Assembly: GCA_026713545.1 (NCBI GenBank)
Contig: JAPOOG010000014.1
Span: 1 to 42,888, forward strand
DNA: 42,888 nucleotides
Origin: Bryobacterales bacterium
GTDB taxonomy: Bacteria > Acidobacteriota > Terriglobia > Bryobacterales > UBA6623
Direction of reading: 5' to 3'
Shown here: in pieces, positions 2,758 through 42,888 of the stretch
Numbering within the stretch: position 1 is the first letter of the stretch
How the letters are laid out: each line of letters starts with the position of its first letter
Program-made: the position numbers and the translations under genes
Notes under the pieces: generated by a model
The model's database searches: none
The model's input: only the letters and a program-made list of their open reading frames with translations
Told to the model about the DNA's origin: nothing

Positions 2758-3108
2758 TGGTGGAGGCGGCGGGAGTCGAACCCGCGTCCGGAATAGTCCT
2801 CCATGGAGAGCCTACATACTTAGTCCGCTCGAAAGTCTCGACCGGTTCGTTGGAACGGACACGCCTGAACCGGTCCAGCCCGATTGTGTGTCAGCCTTGC
2901 GCTCCGGACAGAAGCCTGGGGCCCATCCCGCCAGATGACGCTCCACGCCCCCATGCGGGCCTGTGGACGCGAGCGGCTGCCTGATCAGGCAGCGTATGCT
3001 AACGAATTATCGTTGGCAGTTGTTGTTTTTCCGATCGTTTTACGGGAGCTCGGAACCCGATATGCCTCTCCACGACGGAAGCAATCCCGTCGAATCCGTT
3101 ACGCCCCC
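2758..3108 (-). ncRNA. ssrA: tmRNA (transfer-messenger RNA)
   Basis: One-piece tmRNA, 351 nt, which rescues stalled ribosomes with SmpB and tags the unfinished protein for proteolysis. On the minus strand the 5' end GGGGGCG (3108-3102) pairs with CGCCTCC just before ACCA (2768-2758) to form the 7-bp acceptor stem, and the T-arm GGTTCGACTCC follows the usual pattern. The mRNA-like part lies at 3017-2985: GCC AAC GAT AAT TCG TTA GCA TAC GCT GCC TGA, giving the tag ANDNSLAYAA after the alanine carried by the tmRNA itself. The conserved 5' segment GTAACGGATTCGACGG is present. The CCA end is encoded. No strong terminator follows the 3' end; AT-rich sequence starts at once. Confidence 0.97.
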
Positions 3109-3206: not shown

Positions 3207-3471
3207 CGCGTGCGAGAGAAGGCTGTCGGGGCGAGGCGCGAGCCGGGCGGAGGAAAAAGGCGCGCGCAACACGGCCTGTAAGGTTTTTCACGAATCACGA
3301 GACACGAGACACGGCCTTTCCCGAATCACGCCGTTTCCCGTTCCCCGGCCGTCAAACATTTCTTCTGGAGCAAACCAGATCCCCTGCCCATGGTTTTCAC
3401 GAGACACGAATCACGAGACACGAAACACGGCCTTTTTCTCGCGTGCTGCGGCCGTCAAGTGGTGAGTAATG
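3207..3471 (+). repeat. Dispersed mosaic repeat, copy A (two heptamer arrays)
   Basis: This copy fills the space between ssrA and the 3' end of ubiX. It holds two arrays of a 7-bp unit: CACGAAT, CACGAGA, CACGAGA, CACGGCC (3289-3316) and CACGAGA, CACGAAT, CACGAGA, CACGAAA, CACGGCC (3398-3432). The left flank (about 3234-3288, including GAGCCGGGCGGAGGAAAAAG) matches copy D (9793-9837) almost base for base, and both copies end in GGTGAGYAATG. No coding function is apparent. Confidence 0.9.
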
Positions 3472-3480
3472 CAGGTTGGT

Positions 3481-4461: not shown

Positions 4462-5379
4462 TCAGTCCTTGGTGGTTCGGTTCAGGTCGTAGAGGCCGGG
4501 GACGCCTCGGATGTGGAGGTGGTTGAGAGTGCGGCGTTGCGGGTTGCGCCGCTCGAAGCCGGCCGAGGCGCCGCTGAGGTGGAGCGCGCGGGAATCCCGG
4601 GACCAACGGTATGCGAAGGAACGGCCGCCGCCCGGTTCGGATTCATGCAGCGACACGACCGTTTCGATCTCGCCGCTGTCGAACGACCATAGGTGCAGGC
4701 TGTAGAAGCTGGAGGCGGTGGCGCCCGATCGCAGCAAGGCGCCATGAGTGCGGTCGGGTGAAACGGCCAGGCTGTGGCCGGGGCCGACGTAGCTGAGGTT
4801 CCGCGTTTCCAGGTCGTAGAGGTAGAGCGAGCGCTCCGGCCGGAGGGTATCGTCGAACCAACTGTTCGCATAGCGGCGGAGCTTGTCCCGGACGGGCATC
4901 AACCAGGAATTCCGGCGTTCCAGCACGACGAACGTTTCGCCCCGGCGGCGGATGAATCGTGGCTGGTCGAAGACGATCGAGCCGGGCAGGCTGAGTTCTT
5001 CGAGAAAGCCATCGGTTTCCGACCAGAGGTAGAAGTGCCGCTCGGCGACCCGTCTCTCGCCTTCGTGGGATTGAATGACCCATCGGCCGCTCGATTCGTC
5101 GTGGTCGGTTGCCGCGACCCGGCCGCGGACCGCAACGCCCGGCGGCGTGGCGGGTGCGGTTTGCTCGGCAAGCGGGGTGCCGTTGGAAAACTCGCTGCGG
5201 TAGCCGGCCAGGGCCGGATGCGATTGATCGGTGAGGATCTCGGGAATATGTTCTTCCATGCCGGAGCCCCAGTTGCCGGGCCCGAGAACGGCGACGCACG
5301 AAGCGTGAATGGCCAGGGCGGGGAACAGAAGGGCAAGCAGAACGGCGAAGATCCAGCGCTTGGAACCGGCTGAGTGCAT
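4462..5379 (-). CDS. Secreted protein of unknown function, beta-propeller-like, 305 aa
   Basis: The protein begins with a clear signal peptide (residues about 1-27: basic SKRW, then FAVLLALLFPALAIHA, with the mature part starting around a Cys, so a lipoprotein is possible). The rest is soluble, with repeated short beta-strand segments such as RSLYLYDLETRNLSYVGPG and HSLAVSPDRTHGALLRSG, which resemble WD40/TolB-like propeller blades, but no named family can be given. ATG 5379 is preferred over an upstream TTG at 5397 because it places the basic signal-peptide start correctly; the ribosome binding site is weak either way. Repeats lie on both sides, so no operon partner is evident. Confidence 0.65.
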   Translation of the reverse strand: MHSAGSKRWIFAVLLALLFPALAIHASCVAVLGPGNWGSGMEEHIPEILTDQSHPALAGYRSEFSNGTPLAEQTAPATPPGVAVRGRVAATDHDESSGRWVIQSHEGERRVAERHFYLWSETDGFLEELSLPGSIVFDQPRFIRRRGETFVVLERRNSWLMPVRDKLRRYANSWFDDTLRPERSLYLYDLETRNLSYVGPGHSLAVSPDRTHGALLRSGATASSFYSLHLWSFDSGEIETVVSLHESEPGGGRSFAYRWSRDSRALHLSGASAGFERRNPQRRTLNHLHIRGVPGLYDLNRTTKD

Positions 5380-5611
5380 CACTTCATTCTGCAGCAAAAC
5401 ATGCCGGCGGAGGTTGACTGCGCCCGATCCGGTTGCAATTTGTGTGCGGACGATCTCATCGACGACAGGCGGGAGTCGCCTACCTGGAAGGCCGCGCTTC
5501 GGGGATTTGGAGTCCTGCGCAAGTTACTGGCAGTAGGCGGCGGGACGCCATGAATAGAACGGCGGCGCAGTCCGGAGCCTGGTGTCGAGAGCGCTAAGTG
5601 CCGGCGCAATG

Positions 5612-5747
5612 GGAGAAGTGCCCCTCACGAGACACGAGACACGAAACACAGCTTTTCCCTGTCCCTCCGGCGACTCCAAGGAGAGCAACCCCAAGCCCGG
5701 CCAACGGGTTTTCACGAAACACGAGACAAGAGACACGAGACACGTAT
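5612..5747 (+). repeat. Dispersed mosaic repeat, copy B (two heptamer arrays)
   Basis: Two heptamer arrays: CACGAGA, CACGAGA, CACGAAA, CACAGCT (5627-5654) and CACGAAA, CACGAGA, CAAGAGA, CACGAGA, CACGTAT (5713-5747). The spacer between them (CTTTTCCCTGTCCCTCCGGC, ACTCCAAGGAGAGCAAC, CCAACGGG) recurs between the third and fourth arrays of copy C (6226-6285), so B is a partial copy of C. Confidence 0.88.
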
Positions 5748-5763
5748 TTTTGATACCTCTTGG

Positions 5764-5788
5764 TACTGAAGCCCTTCAGTCTTTTTTT
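5764..5788 (+). terminator. Intrinsic terminator without an upstream gene
   Basis: ACTGAA-GCCC-TTCAGT forms a six-base stem with a four-base loop (5765-5780), followed by C and seven T (5782-5788). It has the form of a rho-independent terminator on the plus strand. No plus-strand gene lies upstream within the window's left part except across repeat B, which ends 17 bases earlier; it could end a transcript of the repeat or a readthrough RNA. Confidence 0.55.
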
Positions 5789-5889
5789 ACTGCCCCGGTC
5801 GGCCTAGCATGAGGTCAGGATGTCGGGAATCATCCGGATCGACTTGCCATCGGCGCGGCGCTCGCTGGGGCGGCGGCCGTCACCCAAGC

Positions 5890-6560
5890 CGGCAACACGG
5901 CCTGTAAGGTTTTCCGCGAGACACGAGACACGAAACACGGCTTTTATGCTTTTCACGAATCACGAGACGCGAATCACGGCCTTTGTGGCCGTTCGGGTCG
6001 CCATGGGCGCGCAAGGGTCGCACCACCAGGAACCGCCGTCCGGACCACTGCGCCCGTCGCCCCGTCACTGTTTCCCTGTTCACGATTGTTCACTATTGTT
6101 CACGATTGTTCGGCATTGTTCAGTAAAAAATATTACCCCTGAGCCAGTGTCCCTCTCCGTCCACACCGGCAACGCGGCCTGTAAGGTTCTTCACGAGACA
6201 CGAGGCACGAATCACGCAACATGGTTTTTCCCTGTCCCACCGGCGACTTCAAGGAGAGCAACACAAGCCCGACCAACGGGTTTTTCACGAATCACGAGAC
6301 ACGAGACACGGCTGTTATGGCTGCCCGAACCCTCGCGCCCGCCGGCAAGTCACTGCTTCTCTGCCCGGAATTGCCCGGCATTGCTCGGTAAAAAAATGTC
6401 CTGCGCCAGTGTCCTTGCCCCGTCAGCCGTTCTCGGTCGGTCTCGAGACGAGCGCCGTTCGCCGCTGCTCCCGTTGCCCTCCGGGCTCGTTCCTTTGCGG
6501 CGAACGCCAAACGAACCCATGCCGAGAAAGGAGGACGTTCGAGATTGCGCCGACAGCCCT
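5890..6560 (+). repeat. Dispersed mosaic repeat, copy C (longest; four heptamer and two decamer arrays)
   Basis: Heptamer arrays stand at 5915-5942, 5954-5981, 6192-6226 and 6286-6313. Decamer arrays stand at 6081-6120 (CACGATTGTT, CACTATTGTT, CACGATTGTT, CGGCATTGTT, then CAGTAAAAAA) and 6364-6383 (CCCGGAATTG, CCCGGCATTG, then CTCGGTAAAAAAATG). Each decamer array is followed by an A-tract and then a block with CCAGTGTCC. The last module (6384-6550, including GTTCTCGGTCGG and CCCATGCCGAGAAAG) is repeated closely, inverted, at 42353-42510 and in decayed form at 11713-11857. Confidence 0.92.
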
Positions 6561-6660
6561 GGCCCGCTATTTGACCGCTCTCCAAGCGGCTGATAGACTA
6601 AGGTTTCTGTAATCTTGAGCGGATTTGCGGTGGTGAGTGTGACCGCTTCTCGCTAAAGCA

Positions 6661-9723: not shown

Positions 9724-9759
9724 CTTGGCCTGGATGTCTCACCTGGTGGCGAGGCGAAG

Positions 9760-9903
9760 TTCGTGAGAGGGCCGGCAGGACAAGGCGCGAGCCGGGCGGA
9801 GGAAAAAGGCGCACGCAACACGGCCTTTAAGGTTTTTTACGAATCACGAAACACGAATCACGGCCTTTTTTCGCGTTCTCCGGCCGTCTGGCGGTGAGCA
9901 ATG
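9760..9903 (+). repeat. Dispersed mosaic repeat, copy D, ending in the mnmE start codon
   Basis: One array: TACGAAT, CACGAAA, CACGAAT, CACGGCC (9838-9865). The flank GAGCCGGGCGGAGGAAAAAG is shared with copy A, and both copies end in GCCGTC, a few variable bases and GGTGAGYAATG. Here that last ATG is the mnmE start. It interrupts a cluster whose other genes overlap or lie within 25 bases. Confidence 0.9.
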
Positions 9904-11295
9904 AAGGCCAGGACTACGTTGTCCGGCTCCGGGGCTTACCCGGCAATACATCCCGACGATACGATCGTCGCGGTTTCCACTCCGCCCGGCAGAGGCGGCA
10001 TCGGTATCGTTCGCCTCTCCGGACCGCAGGCCTTGGAAATCTCCGAACAGCTTGTCCGGCGCACTGATGCGGCGCCCGCGCACGTTCGAAGGCCGCTGCT
10101 TGGTTCATTGCTCGACGATGCCGGCAACGTCGTCGATGAAGTGCTCGTCACCCTGTTCTGCGCGCCGAAATCATATACAGCCGAGGATGTCGTCGAAATC
10201 TCCTGCCACGGCTCGCCCGCGATCCTCGCTTTTGCCGTCGAACGCGCTGTCAGACTCGGTGCTCGCCTGGCCGAACCCGGTGAGTTTACCCGGCGGGCCT
10301 TTTTGAATGAGCGCATCGACCTGGCGCAGGCCGAGGCAATCCACGACCTCATTGAGGCCACCACCGTCTATCAGGCCCGTGTCGCCCTGCAGCAGGCCAA
10401 GGGCGCGCTCTCGAATCGACTTGCTCCCGTCAAGCAGCAGCTCTGTGACTTGATCTCATTGCTCGAAGCAGGAATCGACTTCGCCGAGGATGACATTGAC
10501 GTTGCTTCCGCTGACCAGCTTCTTGAGCGTCTTGAGCCCATTCAATCGGAGGTCCAACGCCTGGTCGAGAGCTATCGCTACGGAAAAGTCGTCCGAGGTG
10601 GACTGACGCTGGCGATTTTGGGACGCCCCAACGTAGGCAAATCCAGCCTGTTCAATCGGCTGCTCGAGCGTGAGCGAGCCATCGTCACGCCACAGGCCGG
10701 AACTACCCGCGACTCGGTCAGCGAAGTCGGTTCGATTCAGGGTCTCCCTATCCAGTTCATCGACACGGCCGGTATCCGCGCCACCACCGACGTCGCCGAG
10801 GTGCAAGGCGTGGAACGCAGCTATCAGGCTTTGGCGGACGCCGACCTCGTGCTCGTCGTCATCGATCTGTCGCAGCCTCTGGATGACACCGATCAACAAT
10901 TGCTGGCGGAGGCGCGCGAGCGCGGCAAGAGCCTCGTTGTCGGCAACAAGGCCGACCTCCCTTCTCAAAACAATTCGGCGGTCGATCTCCGGGTCAGCGC
11001 TGTCACGGGAGAGGGGGTTCAGGCTCTCCGTAAGAGCATTCACGACAGTGTCTTACCCGCTTCCGGCGTCGAGGAAGAGGCCGGCTGGATCACCAACCTG
11101 CGCCACGAAACGCTGCTCAGGGAGTCGCTCGGATCGCTGCAACAGGCCCGCGAGGCCGTCGAAAACGGCATCCCCCATGAGATGCTGCTTCTCGATTTAT
11201 ACGCGGCGCTCCAGGGTTTCGATCAAATCACCGGCGCTACGACCGTGGACGACATCCTCGCCAACATCTTCTCTCGCTTCTGTATCGGCAAGTAA
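9901..11295 (+). CDS. mnmE: tRNA modification GTPase MnmE
   Basis: MnmE, 464 aa, with MnmG modifies the wobble uridine (cmnm5U34) of tRNAs. The N-terminal formyl-THF-binding domain starts at DDTIVAVSTPPGRGGIGIVR (19-38). The inserted G domain has GRPNVGKSS (241-249), GTTRD (267-271), DTAG (288-291) and NKAD (349-352), and the C-terminal motif is CIGK. All key residues are present. The first ATG coincides with the end of repeat copy D; about 16 residues precede the conserved start, more than in typical MnmE, so the repeat may have replaced the native leader. No mnmG is seen nearby. purS follows after 15 bases. Confidence 0.96.
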   Translation: MKARTTLSGSGAYPAIHPDDTIVAVSTPPGRGGIGIVRLSGPQALEISEQLVRRTDAAPAHVRRPLLGSLLDDAGNVVDEVLVTLFCAPKSYTAEDVVEISCHGSPAILAFAVERAVRLGARLAEPGEFTRRAFLNERIDLAQAEAIHDLIEATTVYQARVALQQAKGALSNRLAPVKQQLCDLISLLEAGIDFAEDDIDVASADQLLERLEPIQSEVQRLVESYRYGKVVRGGLTLAILGRPNVGKSSLFNRLLERERAIVTPQAGTTRDSVSEVGSIQGLPIQFIDTAGIRATTDVAEVQGVERSYQALADADLVLVVIDLSQPLDDTDQQLLAEARERGKSLVVGNKADLPSQNNSAVDLRVSAVTGEGVQALRKSIHDSVLPASGVEEEAGWITNLRHETLLRESLGSLQQAREAVENGIPHEMLLLDLYAALQGFDQITGATTVDDILANIFSRFCIGK

Positions 11296-11712: not shown

Positions 11713-11857
11713 AGCTGGTGTCCGCGGACCTTCCGTAGTTCTCGGTCGGCACACGACAAGCGCCGTCGGCCGCAACTCCCGTCGCCCTGCGGACTTCTTG
11801 CGATGCCGTGAAGGCCCAATGAACCATGCTGAGCAAGGGGAACGTTCTTTACTGCAC
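11713..11857 (+). repeat. Dispersed mosaic repeat, decayed copy F
   Basis: It aligns with the last module of copy C (6405-6550) and with copy E: GGTGTCC, AGTTCTCGGTCGG, AAGCGCCGT, GTCGCCCT, AATGAACCATGC and GGGGAACGTTC recur in the same order, with many substitutions. There are no heptamer or decamer arrays in this copy. Confidence 0.75.
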
Positions 11858-11948
11858 AAACAGAGGAGCTTTCTGGGTCGCGTTGGCACGCCCGGCTCCA
11901 ATCTTGACAGCGAAGTATAGTACCCCCTAATCTGAAAGTTCGAAACCG

Positions 11949-42194: not shown

Positions 42195-42888
42195 GGAGCA
42201 GATCCCTCCGACCTTGGTGACCAAAGCCGGGTCTGTACAACAATCCCGTAGCCTGAACTAAACCACCGTGCACGGCGAGTATGTCAAACCGGCCGGCGGG
42301 TGTCAAGGTAGTTTCCTGGTCTGTCAAGGCTCGATAGAAATGCGTCATCGCAATATCGAACGTTCCCCTTTCTCGGCATGGGTTCATTCGGTGTTGGCCG
42401 CAGCGCAAGGAGCCTGGAGGGCGATGGGAACTGCGGCGAACGGCGCTCGTCTCGAGGCCGACCGAGAACGGCTGATGGGGCAAGGACACTGGCGCAGGAC
42501 ATTTTTTTACCGAGCAATTCCGGGCAATGCCGGGCAATTCTGGGCAATTCTGGGCAGAGAAGCAGTGACTTGTCGGCGGGCGCGACGGTTCGGGCGGCGA
42601 AAAAAGCCGTGTTTCGTGTCTCGTGATTCGTGAAAAGCATAAAAGCCGTGTTGCGTGACTCGTGTCTCGTGAAGAACCTTACAGGCCGCATTCCCGGTGT
42701 GGACGGAGAGGGGACACTGGCTCCAGGGTACTATTTTTAGCTGAACAAGGCGGTGGACCCCTGAAGTGAGACAAGCCGGTAAGCAGGTTTTCCCCATTTG
42801 CTGAAAAATGGTGGGCTGGGGAACGGCCCTCATAGTAAACTCTTCGTCGGCTGGCGAAGCGGAGGCGGGCTCTGCTGGAGAGCAACCC
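42195..42888. other. Intergenic region to the window edge
   Basis: Mostly repeat copy E (42353-42752). The remaining bases (42195-42352 and 42753-42888) contain no recognisable gene or site; a promoter for the Gfo operon should lie in 42195-42350 but no clear boxes are seen. Confidence 0.5.
42353..42752 (-). repeat. Dispersed mosaic repeat, copy E, inverted
   Basis: On the plus strand: the module matching 6384-6550 in reverse (42353-42505), an A-tract as T-run, then decamers CGAGCAATTC, CGGGCAATGC, CGGGCAATTC, TGGGCAATTC (42511-42550), heptamers AGCCGTG, TTTCGTG, TCTCGTG, ATTCGTG (42605-42632) and AGCCGTG, TTGCGTG, ACTCGTG, TCTCGTG (42644-42671), then a block matching 6121-6190 in reverse. 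Module order equals that of copy C, so C and E are two inverted, near-complete copies about 36 kb apart. Confidence 0.92.

What the first reader, a model, noticed from the sequence alone, without database searches (positions are those of the whole stretch)
6081..6400. Second tandem unit of 10 bp in the same elements, always followed by an A-tract and CCAGTGTCC
Decamer arrays at 6081-6120, 6364-6383 and, inverted, 42511-42550 have four, two and four units (core ATTG every ten bases). Each runs into TCAGT/TCGGT plus six or seven A. Ten-base spacing would put a bound protein on one DNA face, and the A-tract may bend the helix. Copy number differs between copies, so the arrays expand and contract independently of the heptamer arrays in the same element.
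Basis: seen in the sequence. Interest (0 to 1): 0.65.

Follow-up and report, generated by a model that had tools for sequence, protein, structure and literature searches.

The report
Transposons that land beside promoters
The ten-base repeats lie inside short transposons that, like related insertion sequences in sister bacteria, sit a fixed 15 bases upstream of the promoters of other genes, which suggests that these mobile elements find their targets by finding promoters.

Summary
The decamer arrays are real: 58 arrays in the loci read, 10-bp spacing strict, none in reversed controls. The A-tract follows 39 of 58 arrays and exact CCAGTGTCC 22 of 58, so "always" is wrong. Orthologous arrays in a sister species differ by one unit at three sites.

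The larger finding is what carries them. The arrays lie inside non-coding, 0.44-1.35 kb transposon-like elements with 26-bp terminal repeats. Some still have 15-bp target duplications. A related high-copy insertion sequence in two relatives shows 15-16-bp duplications in all 16 insertions whose flanks could be paired. One of its ends faces a sigma70-like promoter, whose -35 box starts 15-16 bp away, in 18 of 24 insertions (0.17 expected); the other end does so in 1 of 33. The window elements keep this geometry: TTG 15 or 16 bp beyond the right end in 15 of 35, and beyond the left end in 8 of 26.

Best reading: relics and non-autonomous copies of a promoter-targeting insertion sequence, probably IS1202-like. 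Its own transposase was not recovered. The decamer arrays are internal repeats whose role is unproven.

The parts
5599..6555 (+). Composite transposon-like element 1, between the gene at 4462-5397 (-) and rpmH (+). Its two halves probably come from two different insertions.
   Evidence: left and right terminal repeats; the flanking 15-mers do not match each other
5599..5625 (+). left terminal repeat, TGCCGGCGCAATGGGAGAAGTGCCCCT
5584..5598 (+). 15-bp left flank GTCGAGAGCGCTAAG; 13 of 15 bases equal to the right-hand spacer of the element in locus L013 (GTCGAGAGCGCTTCG)
5765..5789 (+). terminator-like palindrome ACTGAAGCCCTTCAGT followed by a T run; 126 copies in the genome at up to 2 mismatches
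6079..6118 (+). decamer array, TTC type, 4 units
6119..6130 (+). TTCAGT plus A-tract
6364..6383 (+). decamer array, CCC type, 2 units
6384..6396 (+). CTCGGT plus A-tract
6405..6555 (+). conserved right-end module (tail), beginning GCCAGTGTCC
6530..6555 (+). 26-bp terminal unit GGAGGACGTTCGAGATTGCGCCGACA, the right end of the element
6556..6570 (+). 15-bp spacer between the element end and the -35 box
6571..6599 (+). sigma70-like promoter of rpmH, TTGACC-17-TAGACT; also present without the element in G002
11837..11888 (+). element 3, right end: two tandem 26-bp units; -35 TTGACA at 11904-11909. No decamer array left in this copy; the orthologue in G001 has 4 units
42343..42751 (-). element 2, right part; the left end is not seen before the contig end
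42515..42554 (-). decamer array, CCC type, 4 units
42322..42368 (-). right-end 26-bp unit (42368-42343), 15-bp spacer (42342-42328) and TTGACA (42327-42322). The best-scoring promoter uses a second TTGACA 36 bp from the end
3210..3475 (+). related heptamer repeat without decamers, absent at the orthologous site in G002
9724..9918 (+). related module plus heptamers without decamers, absent at the orthologous site in G002

Best explanation
The decamer arrays are internal tandem repeats of non-autonomous or relic transposons. SHOWN: the elements end in 26-bp repeats (left TGTCGG..., right ...GTTGACA, often two tandem copies at the right end). Some are flanked by 15-bp duplications. Their ends match those of a high-copy insertion sequence in two related genomes. 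In all three groups one edge of the 15-16-bp duplication tends to abut the -35 box of a promoter. INFERRED: the transposase joins DNA at the upstream edge of a promoter's -35 box and 15-16 bp further upstream, so that the element ends up beside a working promoter; it may recognise the -35 sequence itself or RNA polymerase bound there. INFERRED: decamer units are gained and lost by slippage or recombination between copies. WEAKER: the decamer core TTC-NNN-ATTG also occurs in the terminal units, so the arrays may be multiplied transposase-binding cores.
For: Relatives: 16 of 16 insertions whose two flanks could be paired have a 15-bp (13) or 16-bp (3) duplication, and TTG follows the duplication directly in 12 of 16. 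End-B flanks: TTG at 15 or 16 in 12 of 16 (G002) and 7 of 8 (G004); end-A flanks: 3 of 25 and 0 of 8. Promoter score of 8 or more at 15/16: 18 of 24 end-B flanks (0.17 expected) against 1 of 33 end-A flanks (0.18 expected); the gene after end B points the same way in 19, opposite in 1, unclear in 4 of 24. G000 right ends: TTG at 15 in 12 and at 16 in 3 of 35, no other offset above 4; -10-like matches are among the highest at 38. Second G000 sample, found by another route: TTG at 15 in 7 of 14, at 14 in 2. G000 left ends: 8 of 26. G001: 5 of 17 at 15. Promoters exist without elements at three orthologous sites in G002. Duplications in G000/G001: 5 of 66 spacers have an upstream copy with 13 or more of 15 matches, shuffled maximum 12; copies beside the left repeat in L284, L271, L103 and L097. 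Terminal units containing TTCNNNATTG: 27 of 59, shuffled units 0.1%.
Against: Most G000/G001 elements show no clear duplication, and about half or more lack a recognisable -35 at the expected place. Polarity differs: in G002/G004 end B is promoter-proximal, while in G000 both the right (A-like) and left (B-like) ends are. The transposase of the high-copy element was not recovered. The one transposase found next to similar ends (L344) belongs to a different copy that has no 15-bp duplication and no promoter at the fixed distance. Element 1 in the window lacks matching duplications. No transposition was observed.
Confidence: 0.78

Rival explanations
1. The fixed spacing is made by selection. The elements insert anywhere, and copies whose end lies 15 bp from a promoter are kept because they help, or at least do not harm, expression of the gene.
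For: In G000/G001 the elements are old and degenerate, so survivors could be a selected subset. Tails face a same-strand downstream gene in 44 of 55, opposite in 9, no gene called in 2.
Against: In G002 and G004 the ends are sequence-identical, which points to recent insertions, yet 18 of 24 end-B flanks already have a promoter at 15/16. Selection would not set the duplication length.
Confidence: 0.12
2. The decamer arrays are helically phased operator arrays for a host regulator, and the transposon is only their vehicle.
For: Spacing is strictly 10 bp. The arrays sit at a fairly constant distance from the right end, mostly 155-181 bp. The units next to the array borders differ in a regular way.
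Against: The genome below the genus level lacks the arrays. Orthologous genes keep different array types or none. Curvature exceeded shuffles in 2 of 6 arrays only. No binding protein is known.
Confidence: 0.12
3. The arrays are multiplied transposase-binding cores that help assemble the transposition complex, like the extra transposase sites near the ends of Tn7 and IS1202-type elements. This adds to the best explanation.
For: The decamer consensus TTC-NNN-ATTG occurs in 27 of 59 terminal units against 0.1% of shuffled units. IS1202-type elements carry an additional transposase site near each end (abstract of PMC10132070).
Against: CCC-type arrays (26 of 58) do not match the terminal core. 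Some elements have no array. Arrays lie about 170 bp inside the end.
Confidence: 0.3
4. Ordinary intergenic repeats (BOX- or STRR-like) that multiply by slippage and recombination, without transposition or targeting.
For: Modular make-up, intergenic position, unit-number variation.
Against: Terminal repeats, 15-bp duplications and end homology with a high-copy insertion sequence.
Confidence: 0.05

Closest known systems
IS1202 family of insertion sequences, long-duplication subgroup (Harmer et al. 2023, PMC10132070; abstract and sections 17-19 read)
   Same: Ends 5'-TGT and ACA-3'; about 24-26-bp terminal repeats; an additional repeat next to the terminal one; long target duplications (16-28 bp in that subgroup, 15-16 bp here); strong orientation relative to the target in G002/G004.
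   Different: The paper reports no conserved target for the long-duplication members; here the target is the -35 side of promoters. The duplication is 15 bp in most cases. The transposase of the element itself was not seen.
ISAjo2-type IS1202-family elements that target dif sites (same paper)
   Same: Insert at a fixed distance and in one orientation beside a site that is bound by a host protein.
   Different: 5-bp duplication and XerC/dif target there; 15-16-bp duplication and promoter target here.
Pneumococcal BOX elements (PMC3049150; 12 passages seen)
   Same: Small intergenic interspersed elements with conserved outer modules and a variable number of inner units.
   Different: No promoter-targeted insertion is described in the passages seen; module sequences were not compared.
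Short tandem repeats: TAACTGA heptamers of Beggiatoaceae (PMC4679880; abstract and introduction read) and repeat elements of Geobacter metallireducens (PMC2700814; 11 passages seen)
   Same: Many copies of 7-8-bp tandem repeats in intergenic DNA, proposed as regulator sites.
   Different: 10-bp units here, inside a transposon with terminal repeats.
Ty3 and Ty1 retrotransposons of yeast (recalled, no call)
   Same: Integration next to genes through contact with the transcription machinery.
   Different: Eukaryotic, RNA polymerase III, retroelements; for the bacterial element such contact is only a hypothesis.

Membership tests
IS1202 family | ends 5'-TGT ... [quoted passage not shown]
   G002/G004 ends A and B agree in 21 of 26 positions and end in GACA; G000 left and right ends agree in 19 of 26
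IS1202 family | additional transposase-binding site near each end | tested here: inconclusive
   Ends A and B each show a second tandem repeat of about 26 bp; that the transposase binds it was not tested
IS1202 family | long target duplication (16-28 bp) in the IS1202 subgroup | tested here: inconclusive
   13 pairs with 15 bp, 3 with 16 bp, of 16 pairs: at the lower border of the published range
IS1202 family | transposase related to those of the family | tested here: inconclusive
   High-copy element: body not assembled. A related 1.9-kb element in G002 (L344) with similar ends encodes a protein matching NF033594 ISNCY family transposase, 363 bits against a cut-off of 250. That NF033594 covers the IS1202 group is recalled
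IS1202 family, ISAjo2 type | 5-bp duplication next to a dif-like site | tested here: not met
   Duplications are 15-16 bp and the neighbouring sequence is a promoter; dif sites were not searched for
IS200-type REP elements (RAYT) | Y1 transposase in the genome | tested here: not met
   PF01797: no match in G000
IS21 family | IstA/IstB pair between the ends | tested here: not met
   IstA/IstB locus L325 carries none of these ends within the 3.7 kb read
Rfam RNA families | match to a described structured RNA | tested here: not met
   No match in 5550-6660 up to E = 1
BOX elements | boxA-boxB-boxC sequence modules | not tested
   Compared by architecture only

The most novel reading that the evidence does not exclude
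A bacterial insertion sequence selects its target by recognising promoter-bound RNA polymerase (or sigma factor at the -35 box) and joins DNA at the upstream edge of that complex: a bacterial counterpart of transcription-machinery-guided integration. Its non-autonomous offspring have spread over the promoters of a whole genome, and the decamer arrays are multiplied transposase-binding cores.
Probability: 0.35. Interest if true: 0.92.

Novelty: new variant of a known kind. Interest (0 to 1): 0.8.

Why it matters
If true, a bacterial insertion sequence has a simple, testable rule for finding promoters. That would explain how such elements multiply without breaking genes and why they settle upstream of many genes, and it would give the long-duplication IS1202-type elements a target, which the published survey did not find. 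Their insertion sites would mark promoters in uncultured bacteria, and the rule could be useful for placing DNA upstream of promoters.

Tried and rejected
Structured RNA: no Rfam match. RNAalifold gives 3 pairs for the right-end module. A hand-drawn 12-pair stem is paired in 85.3% of cells, far above slid versions, but no better than shuffles on any of the five measures. So an inverted repeat exists without evidence for selection on a structure.

DNA bending: 2 of 6 arrays exceeded shuffles; the wedge parameters are recalled.

REP/RAYT: no Y1 transposase in G000. IS21: the IstA/IstB locus has other ends. Phage or plasmid origin: no blastn match. An 84-residue open frame inside the relic L235 matched no Pfam or NCBIfam model.

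Extension to named relatives: three ISNCY-transposase loci from plasmids were read. One (L346) shows a 5-bp duplication; no confident ends with a duplication were found for L347 and L348. None tests the long-duplication group.

The wide occurrence of ATTGTTC-NNN arrays in other phyla (45 stretches; contexts) was not resolved. In viral contigs the pattern gave 13 stretches against 3 for the reversed pattern. No control scan of genome contigs was possible.

A 16-mer of the right-end module in viral contigs: 6 hits, none with further similarity in the printed context.

Rows dropped: tail hits not reaching position 140 of the model were left out of the orientation count. Elements without a recognisable 26-bp unit were left out of the spacing profile: 2 G000 tails are named. 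Identical flanks were counted once. The gene calls are a home-made codon-score method.

Full report
1. The observation. A 10-bp periodic ATTG pattern occurs 4 times in the window against 0.01 in shuffles and 55 times in the genome (G000) against 0 for the backwards pattern. In loci read from G000 and the sister species G001, 58 arrays of 2-6 units were found against none in reversed sequence. Spacing is strict: 101 ATTG pairs at 10 bp, 1 at 9 and 6 at 11. There are two unit types, TTC-NNN-ATTG (32 arrays) and CCC-NNN-ATTG (26 arrays). An A-run follows 39 of 58 and exact CCAGTGTCC 22 of 58.

2. Unit gain and loss. G001 (about 94% identical in aligned coding DNA) has orthologous elements. At three orthologous sites the arrays differ by one unit: 2 vs 3 (L045/L161), 3 vs 2 (L028/L091) and 2 vs 3 (L041/L163); the third pair also differs by a larger rearrangement. 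At site 11.6-11.9 kb of the window, G001 has 4 units and G000 a decayed remnant. Array type can differ too: the element at 42.5 kb has CCC units, its orthologue TTC units.

3. The surroundings. The arrays belong to a composite element: a terminator-like palindrome (126 copies in G000, 44 in G001, 0 in G002), heptamer arrays, a border GTCACTG...CTG, the decamers, an A-tract, CCAGTGTCC, and a conserved right-end module of about 150 bp. Searched with part of the window element, 3 of 61 genomes match, all of one genus: G000 and G001 strongly, G002 weakly. In 0.66 Mb read from G002 the right-end, terminator and array models had 0 hits and another module 7. In G000 and G001 together the right-end module faces a same-strand gene in 44 of 55 cases, the opposite strand in 9, and no gene was called in 2.

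4. A fixed distance to promoters. The right end consists of one or two 26-bp units, GGGGAACGTTCTATATTGCGTTGACA. Measured from the end of the last unit, TTG lies at offset 15 in 12 and at 16 in 3 of 35 G000 tails; no other offset exceeds 4. The mean match to TTGACA peaks at 15 (2.51, all offsets 1.41, sd 0.24), and the match to TATAAT is among the highest at 38, where a -10 box would lie. In 17 G001 tails, some of them orthologous, offset 15 holds 5 and the -10 match peaks at 38. A second G000 sample, collected through the 26-bp unit alone, gives 7 of 14 at 15 and 2 at 14. The same promoters exist in G002 without an element at three sites (rpmH, 11.9 kb, L013).

5. The same ends form a high-copy insertion sequence in relatives. 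The 26-bp unit was searched in eight genomes. G002 and G004 returned 25 and 8 near-identical copies, nearly all about 40 bp from a contig end, as expected of a mobile element that breaks assemblies. The element has two ends, A and B, each with two tandem units. Pairing of flanks gave 16 insertions, all with a duplication of 15 bp (13) or 16 bp (3); TTG follows directly in 12 of 16. At end B the promoter score at 15/16 is 8 or more in 18 of 24 flanks (0.17 expected from shuffles); at end A in 1 of 33 (0.18 expected). The gene beyond end B points away from the element in 19, opposite in 1 and unclear in 4 of 24. End A is a built-in control, since it belongs to the same insertions. Several targets with a poor -35 box (for example TCGCCA and TTGCGC) still have a good -10 box at the right distance, which fits recognition of a promoter rather than of one hexamer; this is a small sample.

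6. Back to the window. The G000 elements have left ends like end B (24 of 26 positions) and right ends like end A (23 of 26). Left and right ends enclose 0.44-1.35 kb in the better cases. Of 66 spacers examined, 5 have an upstream copy with 13 or more of 15 matches (shuffled maximum 12); four of these copies lie directly beside a left terminal repeat, the fifth (L101) one base away from it. So at least some composite elements are transposons with 15-bp duplications. Left ends also face promoters: TTG at 15 or 16 outwards in 8 of 26. The polarity is thus mixed in G000 but nearly fixed in G002/G004. I have no explanation for this.

7. The window junction. The left flank of element 1 (GTCGAGAGCGCTAAG) matches the right-hand spacer of another element (L013, GTCGAGAGCGCTTCG) in 13 of 15 positions and not its own right-hand spacer. 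In G001 and G002 the gene at 4462-5397 lies near the L013 gene and not beside rpmH. The window therefore joins two insertions through the repeat, either by recombination in the cell or by an assembly error.

8. Which transposase? The body of the high-copy element was not in the assemblies. One rve transposase in G002 (L344) lies between similar ends (TIR 20 of 26, 1.9 kb) and is an ISNCY family transposase (NF033594, 363 bits, cut-off 250). This copy has no 15-bp duplication and no promoter at the fixed distance. Published IS1202-family elements have TGT/ACA ends, an extra transposase site and, in one subgroup, duplications of 16-28 bp with no known target (PMC10132070, abstract and sections 17-19). 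The fit is good but indirect.

9. Role of the decamers. The core TTC-NNN-ATTG is present in 27 of 59 terminal units (0.1% of shuffled units), and arrays lie mostly 155-181 bp from the right end. They may be multiplied transposase-binding cores. The CCC type and the absence of arrays in some elements speak against a strict need.

10. Novelty. Searches for promoter-targeting insertion sequences found none (two returned no papers under strict terms, so they are weak evidence). The IS1202-family survey states that targets of the long-duplication group were not found. I rate this a new variant of a known kind.

Noticed in passing
window 5528-6405: The gene at 4462-5397 is joined to rpmH through element 1, but in G001 and G002 it lies near another gene (that of L013). 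A rearrangement through the repeat or an assembly error.
   Followed up: partly
window 5765 and 126 places in G000: A near-identical terminator-like palindrome ACTGAAGCCCTTCAGTCTT, 126 copies in G000, 44 in G001, 0 in G002, control 0. Its function inside the element is unknown.
   Followed up: no
L013 1975, L021 1802, L022 250; G000:C59:4551 and C112:47452: Another decamer-like repeat family (AAGAATTCCG / ATTGTGGGGA units), also followed by TCGGTAAAAA in three loci.
   Followed up: no
L109-L153: ATTGTTC-NNN arrays of three or more units in 45 stretches of many phyla (Planctomycetales, Bacteroidota, Geobacter relatives and others), without the A-tract and CCAGTGTCC continuation outside Bryobacterales. 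No control scan was possible.
   Followed up: partly
L174-L186: The same decamer pattern in 13 viral-contig stretches against 3 for the reversed pattern.
   Followed up: no
L201 and L317 (G002): One insertion of the high-copy element has end A next to a promoter; its end-B flank, after the duplication, begins with another terminal repeat. Perhaps a nested insertion.
   Followed up: no
window 2758-3108 (-): tmRNA gene with tag ANDNSLAYAA; a heptamer element lies just beside it.
   Followed up: no
window 3210-3475 and 9724-9918: Heptamer-bearing modules without terminal repeats or decamers, missing at the orthologous sites of G002.
   Followed up: partly
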